From assembly GCA_009838765.1 (NCBI GenBank), contig VXQX01000014.1, positions 1 through 64,000 of the forward strand: a stretch of 64,000 nt of DNA, written 5' to 3'. The position numbers were made by a program, and so were the translations under genes. Positions 7,591 through 45,936 of this stretch are shown piece after piece. Below the pieces are notes generated by a model that was not told where the DNA came from, ran no database searches, and worked only from the letters and a program-made list of their open reading frames with translations. Source of the DNA: Gemmatimonadales bacterium. GTDB lineage: Bacteria > Gemmatimonadota > Gemmatimonadetes > Palauibacterales > Palauibacteraceae. The stretch's first letter is position 1; each line of letters begins with the position of its first letter.

Positions 7591-10314
7591 CTAGGCCGGC
7601 TCGACCCTCACGGGGCAGACCTTCAGCTCGGCCGTGTGCGTGATCGGGTCGTAGCCGCCTCCGGTGAGGAAGTTCACCGGCACGTCGTTGAAGCTGAATG
7701 ACGCGAACACGGTTCCTGGCGGGGATCGGTCGTTCGCCTCGACCTTGATCCGGACCTGGCCGCGCGGGCTCGACATCATCGCCCAGCCGCCGTCCTCGAG
7801 ACCCCATTTCGACACGTCGGCCGGGTGCATCTCGAGACTTTCTTCGGACAACAGGTATTCGATCCCCGCGGCGCGCCCCGTCTGCGTTCTCGTGTGATAG
7901 GCCGGCAGTCGGCGCCCGGTCGTGAGCCAGATCGGGTATTCCTCCGAGATCGTCTCGGCCGGGTCCCGGTATCGGATCATCTGGAAGATCCCACGGCCGT
8001 TCTCGAACTCGCCCTCGTGAAGGATGGGCGTGCCGGGGTGGCCCCGCTCCGGCACCGGCCAGTGGTACTCGCCGTGTTCGATGAGATCCCAGTCGAGGCC
8101 GGCGTAGATCGGCGAGAGTGAGCAGAGTTCGTTGAACACCTGCTTGGCCGACTCGAACTCGAAGCCCTTCAACCCCATGCGCTGCGCGATGCGCGACACG
8201 CACCACCAGTCGGGTTTCGCCTCGCCCGGCGGATCCACCGCCTTCCGCAGACGCTGAACGCGCCGCTCCGTATTCGAGCACACGCCGTCCGTCTCCGCCC
8301 ACGCGGTGGCAGGGAGCACGACATCGGCCAACTGCGCCGTCTCGGTGAGGAAGATGTCGATCACGACGAGATGGTCGAGGCTCCGGAGCGCATGCTCGCA
8401 GTGCTCCCGGTCGGGATCCGTCACGACGGTGTTCTCGCCATTGATGATCATGGCGCGGATCCGGTCGCCGCACATGTCGAGCGCCGTGACCTTCGTGGGA
8501 CCCAGTTCGAGGTCCACCTCCCGGCCGTAGGCGGCGGCGAACTTCGCCTGGTACGCCGGGTCGAGCACGTCCTGGAAGCCGGGGTAGTTGTTCGGCAGCG
8601 CCCCGGAGTCTCCGGCGCCCTGGATGTTGTTCTGGCCGCGCATCGGATTGATCCCGGTGCCCTCGCGGCCGACGTTGCCGGTCATGAGAGCGAGATTGCA
8701 CAGGCTCTGCACGTTGTCCACGCCGCAGATGTGCTCCGTGATCCCGAGCGTGTAGTAGATCGCTCCGCGTTCGGCCTTCGCATACCAGCGCGCCGCCTCC
8801 GCGATCAGCTTCGCGTCCACGCCGGTGATGGATTCGGCCCATTCCGGCGGGTACTCCAGGACGTGCTCGACGAAGTCCCGGCCTTCCGTCGTGCGGTCGG
8901 CCACAAAGCCCTCGTCCATCAGCCCCTCGCGGGCGATCGTGTGGGCCATGCCGAGCAACAGCGCGACATCCGACCCCACCCTCAGCGGCAGGTAGATGTC
9001 GGCCATCTCGGCCAGCGCAATCCGTCTCGGATCGGCGACGATGAGCTTCGCGCCCCGGGCCACCGCGCGCTTGATGCGGGTGGCGGCAACGGGATGGCAC
9101 TCGGTCATGTTGGTCCCGATGCAGAAGATCACATCGGGCTTGTCCATGTCCGCGAGCGGGTTCGACATCGCCCCCCGTCCGATAGAGGCCGCCAGACCGG
9201 CGACCGTGGGGGCGTGTCAAGCACGGCTGCAGTTGTCGATCTGGTTCGTACCGAACGCGCCCCGGATGAACCGCTGCATCATGTAGGCGGCTTCGTGCGG
9301 CGCACGTCCGGAGGCGACGCCGTACACGGAGTGCCGGCCGTGGTCCTCCACCGCCGCCGTGAACCCCGCCGCCGCGCGGTCGAGGGCCGTGTCCCAGTCG
9401 GTCTCGTGGAGTTCGCCGTCCTCGCCCCGCACCATCGGATAGGCCAGCCGGTCGGGGTGCTGCACGAAGTCGAAAGCGAACTGCCCCTTGACGCAGAGCG
9501 CGCCCTCGTTGGCGGGTCCATCCATCGCCGGCTGGACGCCGATCAGCTTGTCGCCCCGCGACATCAGGTCGACGGCACACCCGACGCCGCAGTAGGGGCA
9601 GACGGTCCGCGTCTTCTCCGTCTCGCCCGGCACGTCGGCGTTCGCGAGCGCCTTGATGTCGGCGAGGGCGCCGGTCGGGCAGGTCTGGATGCACTGCCCG
9701 CAGAACGTGCAGGCGGAGTCTCCCAGCAGGCCTTCGAACTCTGTCGTGATCTGCGTCTCGAACCCGCGATTCATGACCGAGATTGCGTAGTCGCCCTCCT
9801 GCTCGGCACAGACCCGCACGCAGCGGTAGCAGGAGATGCAGTTCTCGTAGTCGCGGAGGATGAAGGGGTTGTCGTCGTCCGGCCGGCTGCGGCCGGACCT
9901 GGCCCCGGCGAAGCGGCCCGTGCGGGCCTCGTAGCGGTCGAGCAGGACCGCCATCTCCTGCGAAGCGTATCCGGAGAGGGGGTCGACGTCCGTGTCGCGG
10001 TTCTCGGAGGCGACCATCTCCATGAGTACGCGACGGTGCATGTCGAGCCGCGCCGAACGGGTCGTGATCCGCATTCCGGACTCCGCCCGCGTGGTGCAGG
10101 AGGCGACCGGGTTGCGGGCGCCGTCGAGTTCCACGATGCAGAGGCGGCAGCCGCCGAAGGCCTCCAGGCGCGGATCGTAGCACAGCGTCGGGATCTCCTT
10201 GCGGTGTCGCTCGGAGACTTCGTACAGGCTCTCGCCCCGACGGACGCCGACCTTCTCGCCGTCGAGCGTGATCTCGAAATCGAAGCCCGTGCCGTTGCCC
10301 GAATTGTCGCTCAA
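7591..10314 (-). CDS. fdhA: selenocysteine-containing NAD-dependent formate dehydrogenase, catalytic (alpha) subunit
   Basis: A 907-residue molybdopterin enzyme interrupted by a single in-frame TGA (9217-9219), read here as selenocysteine at residue 366 in NCSRA-U-HAPTVAGL, exactly where Sec or Cys sits in formate dehydrogenases. From the N terminus: a [2Fe-2S] ferredoxin domain (Cys45, 56, 59, 73); two [4Fe-4S] motifs (CISCYRCVRVC, CTFCGQCIQTC); the cubane of the Mo domain (CPYCGVGC...C); then the bis-MGD domains. A TTG at 10314 has GGAGG 5 bases upstream; the GTG at 10320 overlaps that site and is less likely. It lies downstream of the NuoEF-type partner and probably reduces NAD+ with electrons from formate, or runs in reverse. 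A naive gene call would split it in two. Confidence 0.93.
9180..9219 (-). promoter_or_regulatory. bacterial SECIS hairpin in fdhA mRNA
   Basis: Directly after the UGA the mRNA folds into a 7-bp stem, GGUCGCC / GGCGGCC (one U-G pair), with loop GGUCU at 9187-9205. The loop begins 18 nucleotides after the UGA. From memory, the E. coli fdhF element has the same GGUCU loop at the same distance. The conserved Gly-Leu codons GGU-CUG of the VAGL motif form the loop. This element would recruit SelB with Sec-tRNA. Confidence 0.85.
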
Positions 10315-10431
10315 ACCCACCTCCGGAGGCGCGAGGACCCCGCACCGCTGGAAACTGCCGGGCCCACCAACATGACGCGCCGCGCGCGTGGCGACAAATC
10401 CGACCGGCGTCCGCGGTCCGACAACGGGCTG

Positions 10432-38103: not shown

Positions 38104-38583
38104 CTAGGTTGCTGCCCGGGCGACGGGTACGACGTCGAGTTCCGTCGTGATCTCGATGCAGCCGGAGAGCGTTCGGTAGACCGGACACTTCGGCGGGTGC
38201 GCTTCGAATGCGCGCCGGATCGCCTCGGCGTGCGCCTCATCCGCCTGGAGACGATATCGGGTCCGGATCCGCCGGATCACGAGTACGCCGTCGTCCGTCT
38301 CGACCTCGCCTTCCACATTCGCCACCAGCCGTCCCTCATCCGCCTTGACGCCACGCGCTTCCAGCGCGCCCCCGAAGGTTCCGGCCAGTCAGCCGCCGGT
38401 CGCGGCGATGACGTAGTCGAGGGTCGTGGCGACGTCGCGCTGGTCGCGGACCCCGTAGTACTCGGCGATTGCGGAGTGGACGCCGAAGTGGACCGGCGCG
38501 TCCGTGGCCGGGATCTCCGCCGTGCGATATGGCCCCTTCTGCCGCACGATCTTCACGTGCGAGCGGTAGACGACTTCACTCAT
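38104..38583 (-). CDS. OsmC-family peroxidase-like selenoprotein
   Basis: A 159-residue OsmC-family protein interrupted only by an in-frame TGA at 38389-38391, read as selenocysteine 65 in DYVIAATGG-U-LAGTFGGALEARG. In relatives this position is the peroxidatic Cys (GGCL). Family sequence continues without shift on both sides: VHFGVHSAIAEYYGVRDQRDVATTLDYV before, GEVETDDGVLVIRR and CPVYRTLSGCIEITTELD after, including Cys133 as possible resolving Cys. OsmC proteins reduce organic hydroperoxides. OsmC-like proteins with Sec have been reported from marine metagenomes. The ATG start overlaps the nudix stop (ATGA), placing it last in the suf-rsgA-nudix run. The gene-end repeat shows its last residues were rebuilt. 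Confidence 0.85.
38122..38162 (+). repeat. right copy of the 41-base direct repeat, inside the osmC 3' end
   Basis: Matches 35305-35345 at 36 of 41 positions. It encodes OsmC residues about 142-154 on the minus strand. After this point the intact gene has four extra codons (A-R-A-A) before its Thr-stop compared with the left copy. Confidence 0.75.
38354..38391 (-). promoter_or_regulatory. candidate bacterial SECIS hairpin in osmC mRNA
   Basis: Downstream of the UGA the mRNA has a perfect 5-bp stem CGCGC / GCGCG (extendable by a G-U pair) with loop UGGAA at 38354-38368. The loop starts 25 nucleotides after the UGA and carries G at its second and third positions. Loop distance and early-loop G match the general bacterial SECIS model (about 16-37 nucleotides, G among the first two bases). 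It is weaker than the fdhA element because the stem is short. Confidence 0.6.
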
Positions 38584-40582: not shown

Positions 40583-41923
40583 TCAGGCCAGTCCGCCGAA
40601 GACTTCGGCTGCCAGGGCGAGACCGTCGCACAGCGCGTCGATCTCCTGCGGCGAATTGTAGAAGTAGAAGCTCGCCCTGGCCGTGGCGCTGAGCCCGTAG
40701 TGGTCCATCAGCGGCTGGTTGCAATGGTGCCCCGCCCGGATCGCGACTCCCCGCTGGTCGAGGATCGTGGAGAGATCGTGCGGATGTATGTCGCCGTACG
40801 TGAAGGAGAAGACCGCGGTCCGCTCCTCGCGGGGGCCGTACAGGCGTAGCCCTTCGATCTCGTCGAGCCGCTCGAGCGCGGCGCGCTTCAGGGCGTCCTC
40901 GTGCGACGCGATCGCCTCCGGTCCGAGGTCCGCGAGGAACCGGACGGCTTCGCCGAAGCCCACGACGCCCGAGATATTGGGCGTTCCGGCCTCGAACTTG
41001 TGCGGAACCTGCGCCCAGGATGATTCCTCGAGCTTCACGTCCGAGATCATCTCGCCCCCGCCCTGGTACGGAGGCATCTCCTCCAGCAACTCGCGCCTGG
41101 CCCAGAGCGCCCCGACACCGGTGGGGCCGCACATCTTGTGGCTGCTGAACGCGTAGAAGTCGCACCCGGTCTTCGCGACATCGGTCAGCATGTGGGGCGC
41201 GGCCTGCGCGCCGTCGATGAGCGTCAACGCGCCGGCCGCGTGGGCCCGGTCCACGATCTCCCGAACCGGATTGACGGTTCCCAGGCTGTTGGAGACGTGC
41301 GTGCAGGCGACCAGCCGGGTCCGCTTCCCGAGGAGCCGGTCGAAGTCGTCCAGATCGAGCGTGCCCCCGGGCGTGACGTCGACGAAGCGGAGGACGCACC
41401 CCGTGCGGCCGGCGAGCAGTTGCCACGGCACGAGATTCGAGTGGTGCTCCATCTTCGTGAGCACGATCTCGTCGCCAGCGCCGATGAACGCGTCCCCCCA
41501 GCTCGACGCGACGAGGTTCACCGCCTCCGTCGTACCGCGCGTGAAGACGATCTCCGCCGGGTTCGTCGTGCCCGCGTGCTCCGCCACCGAACGACGCGCA
41601 CCCTCGTAGGCCTCCGTCGCCTCCGCGCTGAGCTGGTGGACCCCGCGGTGCACATTCGCGTGCTCCCGGCGCAGATAGCGCTCGACCCGGTTCAGCACGC
41701 GGAGAGGCTGCTGCGAGCTTGCCGCGTTGTCCAGGTAGGCCAGGGGATGGCCGTTGACTTCCCTCGACAGAATGGGGAACTGGGCGCGGATCGCCGCGAG
41801 ATCCCAGGCGCCATCCCCCGGAGCCGCACCCGCATCGCCGCGGCCGGTCGCCGCGGGGCGGTCGTCGGACGCAGGCGCGCCCGTCGCGCGCCTCGTATCC
41901 GTCATCTCCGCCGTCTCCGCCAT
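40583..41923 (-). CDS. sufS: cysteine desulfurase SufS
   Basis: A 446-residue class V aminotransferase-fold protein. After a low-complexity leader of about 40 residues come YLDNAASSQQPLRVLN, EHANVHRGVHQLS, TRGTTEAVNLVASSWG, KMEHHSNLVPWQ, the PLP lysine in FSSHKMCGPTGVGA, and the active-site Cys in RAGHHCNQPLM. The HCNQ form (rather than HCAQ) is a small deviation. It releases sulfur from cysteine for Fe-S assembly. It follows the Rieske gene by 25 bases. Confidence 0.95.
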   Translation of the reverse strand: MAETAEMTDTRRATGAPASDDRPAATGRGDAGAAPGDGAWDLAAIRAQFPILSREVNGHPLAYLDNAASSQQPLRVLNRVERYLRREHANVHRGVHQLSAEATEAYEGARRSVAEHAGTTNPAEIVFTRGTTEAVNLVASSWGDAFIGAGDEIVLTKMEHHSNLVPWQLLAGRTGCVLRFVDVTPGGTLDLDDFDRLLGKRTRLVACTHVSNSLGTVNPVREIVDRAHAAGALTLIDGAQAAPHMLTDVAKTGCDFYAFSSHKMCGPTGVGALWARRELLEEMPPYQGGGEMISDVKLEESSWAQVPHKFEAGTPNISGVVGFGEAVRFLADLGPEAIASHEDALKRAALERLDEIEGLRLYGPREERTAVFSFTYGDIHPHDLSTILDQRGVAIRAGHHCNQPLMDHYGLSATARASFYFYNSPQEIDALCDGLALAAEVFGGLA

Positions 41924-41948: not shown

Positions 41949-42260
41949 TCAGGCGAGGTCGACCTGAATGTCGTCCCCGTCGATCCGCACGTCGAAGCGC
42001 CGAACCGGCATGACCGCCGGCAGCGCCCTCGGCTCGCCGGTCGCGAGATCGAAGCGCGCCCCGTGGAGGAGACAGGTAATCTCGCCCGCCTCGACCTCGC
42101 CGTCCGATAGCGGAAACTCCTCGTGGGAGCAACAGTCCTCGAGCGCGTACACCTCGCCCCCGCTCCGGATCAGAGCGATCGCCAGATCTTCGGCCATCAC
42201 GCCGCACGTTCCGTTCTCCGGTACATCGTCGACCCTGGCCACCGTGACGAATCGGCTCAT
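41949..42260 (-). CDS. Rieske-type [2Fe-2S] ferredoxin in the suf operon
   Basis: A 103-residue soluble Rieske protein. The ligands are Cys-x-His in DCCSHEEFPLSDG and Cys-x2-His in CLLHGARFDL, the NirD/biphenyl dioxygenase ferredoxin style. It starts with an ATG that overlaps the sufD stop (ATGA). Such proteins commonly sit between sufD and sufS and may give electrons for cluster assembly; that role is inferred. Confidence 0.93.
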   Translation of the reverse strand: MSRFVTVARVDDVPENGTCGVMAEDLAIALIRSGGEVYALEDCCSHEEFPLSDGEVEAGEITCLLHGARFDLATGEPRALPAVMPVRRFDVRIDGDDIQVDLA

Positions 42261-43588
42261 AGCCCGATCTTCTCCTCGATCGCTTCGCGTACGCGCGCCC
42301 GCACCCCCTCCATGGGAAGGCGTCCCAGAACCTCGTCGAAGAACCCGAACACGAGCAGGCGCTCCGCCTGGCGCCGCGTGAGACCGCGGCTCATCAGGTA
42401 GAAGAGTTGCCCGTCCTCGACCTGCCCGATCGTCGCCCCGTGCGAGCAGCGCACATCGTCGGCCTCGATCTCCAGGTTGGGAAGCGCGGAGGCGTGAGAG
42501 CCCTCGCTCAGGAGCAAGTTGCGGTTCGTCTGGTAGGCGTCCGTCAGCTGGGCGCCCTTGTCGACCCGGATCAGCCCGCGGAACACGCTCGACCCCGAGT
42601 CCGTGAGGGCCCCCTTGAACAACAGATCGCTGTGCGCGTGCGGCGCCGCGTGATGCTGCAGCGTGTGGTGGTCGAAGTGCTGGTCGGAGTCGCCGAACCA
42701 GAGCGCGAGCATCTCGCTGTCGCTCCCGGGCCCGTCGAGACGGCTCGTGACGTCCGTCCGCGCCAGGTCGCCGCCGAGCGTGACGTTGAACGTCACGATC
42801 CGCGAGTCGCGGCCCGCGGCGACGTGCTGCGTCGAGAACCGCTTCACGCCCCGGCCGAAGCGCTGAAGCGCGACGTACTCGATACCCGCGCCCCCCTCCC
42901 CCGTGATCGTCGCCCCGTGAAGCGAGACGGTCTCGGCATCGAGATCGTCGGAGAGGAACTCGTCGATCACCGAAGCCCGCGCGCCCGACTCCCCGTAGAC
43001 GAACGAATGTGCGGAAGAAAGCGTGCCCGCCCGCTCGACGATGTGAAACGCGTGGATCGGCGCCGGCATCTCCACCCCGCGCGGGACGTGGAGGAAGTAG
43101 CCTCCGCCCAGGAGGGCGAGGTGCAGCGCCCAGAGCTTCTCCTCTGCGGGGCCCGGCTGCACCTCGAACAGCGCGCGCCTCAACACCTCCGGATGCCGGT
43201 CCGCCGCGTCCCGGATCGAGCACAGGACCACGCCGCTCCGTGCGACCTCGGGTTCGAGCTCGAGATGTGCGACCCGCCCCTCCCGGAGAACGACGACGCC
43301 CGCCCGCTCTCCGGAGCGCCCGAGCACCTCGCGCACATCCGCCGACAGCGCTTCCGCGGTCGCGGTTGCCGGGACGACCGGCGTCAGCGCCTCGAAACCG
43401 ACCTTCGTGAGGTCCGTGTACCGCCATTCCTCCGACTTCTTCGTCGGCCAGGGCAGGGCGGTGAACCGTTCCCATGCGGCGGCCCGCGCCACCGCGATCG
43501 CTTCCGGCTCCGTCAGCCCGCCGGCAAGCGTATCGAAATCCGCCGCGGCCAGCGTCGACTCCGCCGGCCCGGCCGTCATCGTGCTCAT
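42257..43588 (-). CDS. sufD: SufD, Fe-S scaffold subunit
   Basis: A 443-residue SufB/SufD-fold protein: N-terminal helical part (WERFTALPWPTKKSEEWRYTDL), beta-helix core, and C terminus with [46 protein letters not shown], which holds the conserved His of the SufBD interface. It forms the SufBC2D scaffold with SufB and the SufC ATPase. It lies 49 bases after sufB. Confidence 0.95.
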   Translation of the reverse strand: MSTMTAGPAESTLAAADFDTLAGGLTEPEAIAVARAAAWERFTALPWPTKKSEEWRYTDLTKVGFEALTPVVPATATAEALSADVREVLGRSGERAGVVVLREGRVAHLELEPEVARSGVVLCSIRDAADRHPEVLRRALFEVQPGPAEEKLWALHLALLGGGYFLHVPRGVEMPAPIHAFHIVERAGTLSSAHSFVYGESGARASVIDEFLSDDLDAETVSLHGATITGEGGAGIEYVALQRFGRGVKRFSTQHVAAGRDSRIVTFNVTLGGDLARTDVTSRLDGPGSDSEMLALWFGDSDQHFDHHTLQHHAAPHAHSDLLFKGALTDSGSSVFRGLIRVDKGAQLTDAYQTNRNLLLSEGSHASALPNLEIEADDVRCSHGATIGQVEDGQLFYLMSRGLTRRQAERLLVFGFFDEVLGRLPMEGVRARVREAIEEKIGL

Positions 43589-43637: not shown

Positions 43638-45053
43638 CTATCCGACCGATCCTTCCATCTCCAGTTCGATCAGCCGGTTCAGTTCGATCGCGTACTCGAG
43701 CGGCAACTCCCTGGCCACCGGCTCGATGAAGCCGCGTACGATCATTGCCATCGCCTCCGCCTCGTCGAGGCCACGGCTCATCAGATAAAAGAGCTGCTCG
43801 TCGCCGACCTTCGAGACCGTGGCCTCGTGCCCGATCGACGCCGTGTTCTCATCGATCTCGATGTAGGGGTAGGTGTCCGTCCGCGACTGTTCGTCGAGCA
43901 GCAGCGCGTCGCACTCGACGTTGGACTTCGCGCCCTCCGCGCCGTCATACACCTTGCACAGTCCGCGGTACGAGGAGCGCCCGAGCCCCTTCGAGATCGA
44001 CTTCGAGGTGATCTGGGACGTCGTGTGCGGGGCCGCGTGGATCACCTTGCCGCCCGTGTCCTGGTGCTGACCGTCCCCTGCGTACGCGATGGAGAGGATC
44101 TCGCCGTGCGCGCGCTCTCCGACCAGAAAGCACGACGGATACTTCATCGTGAGTTTCGAGCCCAGGTTCCCGTCGAGCCACTCCATCTTCGCGTCCTCGT
44201 GCACGAGCGCCCGCTGCGTGACGAGATTGTACATGTTGTTCGACCAGTTCTGGATCGTGGTGTACCGAAAGCGCGCGCCCTTCTTGACCACGATCTCGAT
44301 GACGCCGGAGTGGAACGAGTCCGTCGAGTAGACCGGCGCCGTGCAGCCCTCGATGTAGTGGGCTTCGGCCCCTTCTTCGCAGATGATGAGGGTGCGCTCG
44401 AACTGGCCCATGCGCTCCGCGTTGACCCGGAAATAGGCCTGGAGCGGGATCTCCACCTTCACCCCCTTCGGGATGTAGACGAACGACCCGCCCGACCACA
44501 CGGCCGAGTTGAGCGCCGCGAACTTGTTGTCGTGGGTGGGGACGACGGTCGAGAAGTACTGCCGGAACAGCTCCGGGTGCTTCGCGAGTCCATCTTCGAT
44601 CGACTCGAAGATCACGCCCTGCTCCTCCCACTGCTCCTTCAGGGAGTGGTAGACCATCTCGGACTCGTACTGGGCCCCGACCCCGGCGAGCGCCTTACGC
44701 TCCGCCTCGGGGATCCCGAGCTTCTCGAACGTGTCCTTGATCTCCTGCGGGACATCATCCCAGGACCGCTCCATCTGATCCTGCGGCTTCAGGTAGAAAT
44801 AGATCTCGTCGAGCGTGTCTTCGAGCTTCGAGAGATCCCCGCCCCACTTCGGCATCGGCTTGGAGTAGTAGACATCGAGCGCCTTCAGCCGGAAGTCGAG
44901 CATCCATTCCGGCTCTTCCTTGTGATGCGAGATCTGGCGCACGATGTCGCCGGAGAGGCCCGGGACGGCCTTGAAGACGGGCTGGTCCTCGGTGACGAAG
45001 CCGTACTTGTACTCGTCGAGCCCGAGCCCGGTGATGGTCTCGTTCTGAGGCAT
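43638..45053 (-). CDS. sufB: SufB, Fe-S scaffold subunit
   Basis: A 471-residue Suf[129 protein letters not shown]. The length and the conserved Cys/Glu regions match the family. It holds the nascent cluster with SufC and SufD. The 44-base gap before it contains a 12-base direct repeat of the end of sufC. Confidence 0.96.
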
Positions 45054-45097: not shown

Positions 45098-45868
45098 TCA
45101 GACGGCCGCCGTCTGCTGGAGCCAGTCGTAGCCCTCGGCTTCCAGCTTGTCGGCAAGCGAGGCGCCGCCGCTCTCCGCGATGCGGCCGGCCATCATCACA
45201 TGCACGATGTCCGGCTGGATATAGTTGAGGATCCGCTTGTAGTGCGTGATGAGCAGCACCCCGAGCGCCTCGTCGGCCTCGGAGAGGCGGTTCACTCCGC
45301 GGGCCACGACCTTGAGCGCGTCGATGTCGAGCCCGCTGTCGGTCTCGTCCAGCACCCCGAGCGCCGGCCGAAGCACGGCCATCTGCAGGATCTCGTTCCG
45401 CTTCTTCTCGCCGCCGGAGAAGCCGTCGTTCACATACCGGGTGGCGAAGCCCGGATCCATCTTCAGCATCTCCATCTTCTCCGCGAGCGTGCGCTGGAAC
45501 CCGAACACGTCCATCTCCTCGCCCTCGTCCAGCCGCGAGTTGACGGCGGTGCGCAGAAAATTGGCGATCGAGACGCCCGGGATCTCCGCCGGATACTGGA
45601 AGGCGAGAAAGATCCCGGCGCGGCTTCGCTCATCGGGCTCCAGCTCGAGGACATCCTCCCCCTCGAACAGGATCTCGCCGGCTGTCACCTCGTACGCGGG
45701 GTGCCCCGCGATGACCTTGGCCAGCGTGCTCTTGCCCGAGCCGTTCGGTCCCATCAGCGCGTGTACTTCGCCGCGCTGGAGGTCCAGATCGACGCCGCGG
45801 AGAATCTCCGCGTCCTCCCCTTCGACCTTCGCCCGGAGTCCGCGTATCGACAGAAGCGGTTCTGACAT
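45098..45868 (-). CDS. sufC: SufC, ABC-type ATPase of Fe-S assembly
   Basis: A 256-residue ATPase: Walker [13 protein letters not shown], signature [14 protein letters not shown], Walker [17 protein letters not shown], switch His in [10 protein letters not shown]. It drives conformational change in the SufBC2D scaffold. It is the first gene of the run. The start at 45868 is set by GAGG 6 bases upstream. The Fur-like palindrome lies about 70 bases further upstream. Confidence 0.96.
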
Positions 45869-45936
45869 TCGTGTCCTCTTGTGTTGCAAAAGGCCGGTCG
45901 CCCGGCCTGGAAATACAGCGTTCAATTCGAGATGAA

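What the first reader, a model, noticed from the sequence alone, without database searches (positions are those of the whole stretch)
38104..38583. OsmC-family protein encoded with in-frame UGA at the peroxidatic Cys position: a likely selenoprotein
The sequence shows two same-frame halves of an OsmC protein separated only by TGA, in DYVIAATGG-stop-LAGTFGGALEARG. Family proteins have Cys here. Nothing else is missing or shifted on either side, the downstream half keeps its Cys, and the gene is tightly packed in an operon. A second, unmistakable selenoprotein lies in the same window. Sec in OsmC-like proteins has been reported from marine metagenomes but is rare, and its linkage to suf genes is unusual.
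Basis: partly seen in the sequence, partly recalled or inferred. Interest (0 to 1): 0.85.

Follow-up and report, generated by a model that had tools for sequence, protein, structure and literature searches.

The report
Selenocysteine-containing OsmC redox protein
This gene makes an OsmC-type redox protein whose reactive cysteine is replaced by selenocysteine, read from a UGA codon with the help of an RNA hairpin just behind it, and the same arrangement recurs in related genes of at least three bacterial phyla.

Summary
The gene is on the minus strand (38583..38104); UGA65 (38391-38389) is the only stop between two halves of an OsmC protein. The genome has tRNA-Sec, SelA, SelB and SelD. Codons read: UGA at 85 of 85 places in the phylum and 29 in two other phyla. 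Cys stands there in 34 homologues of other phyla. A hairpin 20-36 bases behind the UGA, loop beginning GG, has all seven pairs in 63 of 71 distinct Sec genes and 0 of 34 Cys genes (five Cys genes keep six pairs and the loop). Its changes are compensatory and couple Ala/Val choices in the protein. The genome holds a second, divergent Sec-OsmC. The suf linkage was seen only in the window's genus. Sec-OsmC has been known since 2005, but the two proteins of this genome score far below NCBI's model for it (16 and 23 bits, cut-off 95), and the lineage is common here. A peroxidase using Sec65 and Cys133 is the likely function; that is inferred.

The parts
38104..38583 (-). osmC selenoprotein gene, 159 residues with Sec65, ATG to TAG
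   Evidence: Pfam OsmC 47.7 bits; AlphaFold model pLDDT 91.3
38389..38391 (-). UGA codon read as Sec65, at the OsmC reactive Cys position
   Evidence: TGA in 87 of 87 loci; Cys in 34 homologues; aligned to the Cys of T. thermophilus OsmC 1ukk
38353..38369 (-). bacterial SECIS-type hairpin (7 pairs, loop GGA), 20-36 bases behind the UGA
38185..38187 (-). codon of Cys133, the likely resolving cysteine
   Evidence: a Cys 60-75 residues behind Sec/Cys in 114 of 114 Sec and 34 of 34 Cys proteins; invariant column C133
38580..39371 (-). NUDIX hydrolase ORF directly upstream (first start of the ORF; true start not checked); its stop overlaps the osmC ATG (ATGA)
   Evidence: NUDIX 61.3 bits
39173..40342 (-). 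rsgA ORF (true start not checked)
   Evidence: RsgA_GTPase 168 bits
40081..40578 (-). sufU-like (NifU_N)
40583..41923 (-). sufS-like (aminotransferase class V)
42257..43588 (-). sufD-like
   Evidence: SUFBD_core
43638..45053 (-). sufB-like
   Evidence: SUFBD_core
45098..45925 (-). sufC-like ABC ATPase
   Evidence: ABC_tran; the name sufC is from context

Best explanation
It is a functional selenoprotein gene. The ribosome reaches UGA65. SelB, carrying Sec-tRNA, is held there by a hairpin 20-36 bases behind the UGA, with GG at the start of its loop, so that Sec is inserted instead of termination (supported by comparison, not shown by experiment). The product is an OsmC-fold redox protein in which Sec65 takes the place of the reactive Cys and Cys133 that of the resolving Cys. 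Most likely Sec65 attacks a hydroperoxide, the selenenic acid closes on Cys133, and a cellular dithiol (dihydrolipoamide in the Ohr branch of the family, recalled) reduces the pair again. The reaction, the substrate and the reductant are inferred from the family.
For: In-frame TGA in 46 of 46 family matches; TGA at the aligned codon in 87 of 87 loci of the phylum and in 29 of 32 loci from two other phyla, the other 3 being Cys genes already known. Cys at that codon in 34 homologues. tRNA-Sec (79.7 bits; anticodon TCA), SelB (370.5 bits), SelA (490.6) and SelD (369.7) in the genome. Hairpin: 95.4% of cells paired, 34 doubly changed cells against 10.9 in shuffles, covariation score 0.253 against 0.165, slid versions far lower; all seven pairs in 63 of 71 distinct Sec sequences and 0 of 34 Cys sequences. 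Codons across the stem fit in 71 of 71 (GCA with GTG 27, GTG with GCA 7, GCG with GCG 33, GCC with GCC 4). selA is found in 108 of 115 phylum genomes with the gene against 174 of 280 without (Fisher p 9e-12). A Cys 60-75 residues downstream in 114 of 114 Sec proteins. The model (pLDDT 91.3) matches solved OsmC/Ohr folds, best VIA Z 15.3.
Against: No experiment. Single-sequence folding is no better than shuffles (z 0.94, 0.36 and -0.51), so the hairpin rests on comparison. The compensatory changes stem from few events: 5 and 2 changes on the tree, both sides always changing together, but only 3 and 2 independent pairs on well-supported branches, too few for a significant sign test. Two shuffle measures are not above chance: pairs with changes on both sides (2 against 1.6) and further pair types (5 against 6.6). 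Four of the 71 distinct Sec sequences (L046, L048, L049, L050) lack this hairpin and fold another with GGA in its loop. Seven of 34 Cys genes have six of the seven pairs, and five of these, all titled Acidobacteriota or Terriglobia, also the GGA loop: either remnants of a SECIS or a warning that the protein code alone brings much of the hairpin. selA was not found in 7 of 115 genomes, all drafts. The Glu ten residues before the Cys of Ohr/OsmC (recalled) is absent: L, V or I at -10 and Asp at -9 in 114 of 114, so the chemistry may differ from Ohr.
Confidence: 0.9

Rival explanations
1. The TGA is a real stop: a broken gene, a sequencing error, or two separate short products.
For: Read by the standard code the frame ends after 64 residues of this gene.
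Against: An in-frame TGA in every match of 29 family genomes and in every printed row of the phylum search, at the same codon wherever it was read, with the downstream Cys and protein sequence conserved; Cys homologues continue through it.
Confidence: 0.02
2. UGA is read as another amino acid by a changed genetic code or a suppressor tRNA.
For: The frame is open if TGA is sense.
Against: 54 of the 85 genes read in the phylum end in TGA themselves, the own-genome paralogue L002 among them; a full Sec apparatus is present; Cys is the homologous residue in the 34 homologues, which were found by a Cys pattern; the complete hairpin goes with TGA and not with TGY.
Confidence: 0.01
3. Sec is inserted, but the protein is not a hydroperoxide reductase: it does other thiol or selenol chemistry, for example thiol-disulfide exchange or handling of an electrophile or sulfur species, in this genus perhaps tied to Fe-S cluster assembly by its place behind suf genes.
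For: No NCBIfam model is reached at its cut-off; Asp at -9 and no Glu at -10; suf linkage in 5 of 5 further regions of the genus.
Against: OsmC fold with the two-residue Sec/Cys arrangement; no suf genes next to it in 15 regions of other genera.
Confidence: 0.3

Closest known systems
OsmC-like selenoprotein of Sargasso Sea and GOS metagenomes (PMC1088965, PMC2398784); NCBIfam NF041052 OsmC_like_Se
   Same: OsmC-like protein with Sec at a redox position and Cys homologues
   Different: Reported motif UxxT in 3 and 5 sequences; here U[LM]xGT in 114 of 114, that is UxxxT. NF041052 scores 16.3 and 22.6 bits on the two own-genome proteins, cut-off 95. The marine sequences were not on hand; that NF041052 stands for them is inferred from its name.
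OsmC/Ohr organic hydroperoxide reductases (PF02566; 1ukk, 1nye, 6ebg)
   Same: Fold, position of the reactive residue, downstream Cys
   Different: Sec for Cys; Asp at -9, no Glu at -10; below the TIGR03562 OsmC cut-off (20.8 of 85.8 bits)
Bacterial selenoproteins with SECIS, such as FdhA
   Same: UGA, hairpin with GG in the loop just behind it, SelB; the window's own FdhA gene has GGUCU in the loop
   Different: Here the hairpin sits in the ALExR codons and couples Ala/Val choices in the protein
Cys homologues in records titled Acidobacteriota, Actinomycetota and Desulfuromonadales/Syntrophobacteraceae
   Same: Same subfamily, up to about 50% identity
   Different: TGY codon (27 TGC, 7 TGT); no complete hairpin in 34 of 34

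Membership tests
OsmC superfamily (PF02566) | Pfam OsmC above the gathering score | tested here: met
   47.7 bits, cut-off 27.5; fold match Z up to 15.3
OsmC superfamily (PF02566) | Two redox residues: reactive Cys/Sec in the central helix and a second Cys further on | tested here: met
Ohr/OsmC peroxidase | Catalytic Glu ten residues before the reactive Cys (recalled) | tested here: not met
   L, V or I at -10 and Asp at -9 in 114 of 114 Sec proteins
Ohr/OsmC peroxidase | Reduces organic hydroperoxides | not testable with these tools
   needs an enzyme assay
Bacterial selenoprotein | In-frame UGA with conserved protein on both sides | tested here: met
Bacterial selenoprotein | Cys at the UGA position in homologues | tested here: met
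   34 of 37 pattern hits
Bacterial selenoprotein | SECIS-type hairpin close behind the UGA with G in the loop | tested here: met
   by comparison; single-sequence folding gave no support
Bacterial selenoprotein | selA, selB, selC, selD in the genome | tested here: met
Bacterial selenoprotein | Sec shown in the protein | not testable with these tools
   needs mass spectrometry or 75Se
NF041052 OsmC-related (seleno)protein | Score above NCBI's curated cut-off | tested here: not met
   16.3 and 22.6 bits, cut-off 95

The most novel reading that the evidence does not exclude
This is a separate, deep OsmC lineage in which Sec is the normal and perhaps the ancestral state, with Cys forms arising later and separately in three groups, some still carrying a decayed SECIS. 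In it the SECIS has shaped the protein, since Ala and Val at two positions change together to keep an RNA base pair. Its Asp-based active site may serve a substrate other than that of Ohr/OsmC.
Probability: 0.4. Interest if true: 0.65.

Novelty: new variant of a known kind. Interest (0 to 1): 0.55.

Why it matters
Annotation that reads UGA as stop would break these genes, so a redox protein found in 115 of 395 genomes of this phylum sample is easily missed. It gives a natural Sec/Cys series in one protein family, with at least two genomes that seem to hold both forms, for asking why a lineage keeps Sec. It also shows an RNA signal inside a coding region that appears to constrain which amino acids can be used.

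Tried and rejected
Single-sequence folding gave no support. Conserved neighbours outside the window's genus were sought among up to five ORFs on each side in 35 regions and no widely shared one was found (largest groups span 5 regions; ORF calling was crude), so gene context does not tell the function. A plasmid search for the protein found nothing. Promoter and terminator scans were uninformative. Three of the 37 Cys-pattern hits (L115, L139, L146) were chance matches and were dropped. The Sargasso OsmC record is not in the collections held, so the marine sequences were not compared. No tool names the window's phylum; Gemmatimonadota is my guess from gene content and was not tested.

Full report
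What is in the sequence. The gene is on the minus strand, 38583 to 38104, with ATG, 159 residues and TAG; residue 65 is TGA at 38391-38389. The ATG overlaps the stop of a NUDIX gene (ATGA). Upstream in the same direction stand rsgA and sufU-, sufS-, sufD-, sufB- and sufC-like genes (families by Pfam). The read-through protein is an OsmC (47.7 bits, cut-off 27.5).

Conservation of the UGA. A Pfam OsmC search of the own genome found three OsmC genes: one without a stop, and two with a single TGA, the window gene and a distant paralogue on contig C65, 33% identical. In the window's family 29 of 35 genomes have matches, 17 of them two; all 46 matches hold a TGA. In the phylum sample 115 of 395 genomes match at E 1e-10, and every row printed has a TGA; the tool cut the list, so the remaining rows were not seen. 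I read the codon itself in 87 loci, 85 of them distinct places: TGA in all. Matches also occur in 31 of 396 genomes of the phylum of G402, a Terriglobia (Acidobacteriota) record (33 matches: 32 with TGA, one without), and in 36 of 395 genomes of the phylum of G414, a Syntrophobacteraceae (Desulfobacterota) record (37 matches: 36 with TGA, one without). The phylum names are inferred from the record titles, and each sample was centred on a genome already known to hold the gene. Of the 32 loci read have TGA and 3 have TGT, which are Cys genes already known; for the other rows of those calls the place of the TGA was not read.

Cys homologues. A pattern asking for a Cys codon at this place, scanned over a collection of 84,980 species, gave 37 stretches, 34 of them homologues by tblastn. 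By title they come from Thermoleophilia/Miltoncostaeales and other Actinomycetota, Acidobacteriota and Desulfuromonadales/Syntrophobacteraceae; one is titled only 'bacterium'. The pattern is strict, so other Cys forms may exist, and the tool may leave out records near the window. Of 24 genomes behind 25 of these loci, G402 and G414 have a Cys copy and a second match with a TGA (the codon was read only for G402, as L204). On a 105-row tree built without the Sec column, at least three Sec/Cys changes are needed, with Cys in three separate clades. The root is not inferred, and Sec and Cys rows were gathered in different ways, so the direction of change is open.

SECIS. A seven-pair hairpin (columns 23-29 with 33-39 of alignment A1, counted from the U of UGA) has a loop that begins with GG in 71 of 71 distinct sequences. 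Cells paired 95.4% against 90.7% in shuffles; doubly changed cells 34 against 10.9; covariation score 0.253 against 0.165; none of 500 shuffles reached these three values. Pairs changed on both sides (2 against 1.6) and further pair types (5 against 6.6) are not above chance. Versions slid by 1 to 3 columns pair in 14 to 69% of cells with no doubly changed cell. Complete hairpins: 63 of 71 Sec, 0 of 34 Cys; but seven Cys genes have six pairs, and five of these, from Acidobacteriota records, also the GGA loop. The stem falls on five codons: GCA..GTG (Ala..Val, 27), GTG..GCA (Val..Ala, 7), GCG..GCG (33) and GCC..GCC (4, both Ala..Ala) account for all 71. On the tree this took 5 and 2 changes, both sides changing together each time; the sign test is too small to be significant. 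The four GCC sequences do not form this hairpin but another with GGA in its loop. In the ten loci L195-L204 from the phylum of G402, 8 have all seven pairs; L207-L224, from that of G414, mostly fold a different hairpin, by eye also with GG in or near the loop, and L205 only four of the seven pairs. Folding of the single window sequence is not remarkable.

Machinery. tRNA-Sec with anticodon TCA, SelB, SelA and SelD (itself with a TGA) are present. In the phylum sample selA is found at E 1e-50 in 108 of 115 genomes with Sec-OsmC and in 174 of 280 without; the seven exceptions are drafts of 150 or more contigs and 73-95% completeness.

Structure and chemistry. AlphaFold gives a confident OsmC fold (pLDDT 91.3), nearest to solved OsmC-like proteins (2onf Z 15.3, 1ml8 14.0, 1ukk 13.0). 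A profile of the family aligns Sec65 with the reactive Cys of T. thermophilus OsmC and Cys133 with its second Cys, at a weak E of 5.6e-4 (that the first is the reactive one is recalled). A Cys 60-75 residues behind the Sec is kept in 114 of 114 Sec proteins, U[LM]xGT in 114 of 114, and Asp nine residues before the Sec in 114 of 114. The Glu at -10 of Ohr/OsmC (recalled) is absent. A selenol/thiol peroxidase is the best reading, but substrate and reductant are unknown.

Neighbourhood. suf genes and rsgA lie directly upstream in 5 of 5 further regions of the window's genus (17 genus genomes are held); in 15 regions from other genera, some of them short, no suf genes are next to the gene (one has sufB and sufC about 5 kb away, one a weak ABC match). 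The linkage is therefore no general clue to function.

Known or new. Searches for OsmC with selenoprotein or selenocysteine, and for Gemmatimonad or Acidobacteria with selenoprotein terms, gave the marine reports of an OsmC-like selenoprotein (PMC1088965, passages and outline; PMC2398784, one passage: motif UxxT, 3 and 5 sequences) and two reviews that list it once each (PMC9312934 and PMC13188914, passages). A term search in the deep-Sep paper for OsmC and Gemmatimonad had no hit (PMC12013277). The other papers were seen as listings only. NCBI's model NF041052 scores the two own-genome proteins at 16.3 and 22.6 bits against a cut-off of 95. So Sec in an OsmC-like protein is known; a separate and widespread Sec-OsmC subfamily with its SECIS was not met in these searches of an open-access library.

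Noticed in passing
window 7591-10320 (-): Formate dehydrogenase alpha selenoprotein (TIGR01591, 720.4 bits) with TGA at 9219 and a hairpin with GGUCU in its loop behind it.
   Followed up: partly
L002 (G000:C65:11350-11799): Second, divergent Sec-OsmC in the same genome; its type is a well-supported clade of 34 rows in the tree.
   Followed up: yes
L154 (G000:C43:6923-7849): selD carries a TGA itself, so SelD is probably a selenoprotein in this genome.
   Followed up: partly
L027 (G000:C64:48000-64000): tRNA-Sec, tmRNA and selB lie within about 8 kb of each other.
   Followed up: no
genomes G402 and G414: One Terriglobia and one Syntrophobacteraceae genome carry a Cys copy and a TGA-holding copy of this OsmC subfamily.
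   Followed up: partly
L046-L050: Five Sec-OsmC genes of the window's family (four distinct sequences) lack the common hairpin but can fold GGGC-GGA-GCCC nearer the UGA: the SECIS seems to have moved.
   Followed up: partly
L117, L118, L123, L150, L151: Five Cys-type genes from Acidobacteriota records keep six of seven hairpin pairs and the GGA loop, perhaps a decayed SECIS.
   Followed up: no
L207-L224: Sec-OsmC genes from the phylum of G414 mostly use a different hairpin sequence (CUGGCC..GGCCGG type) behind the UGA.
   Followed up: partly
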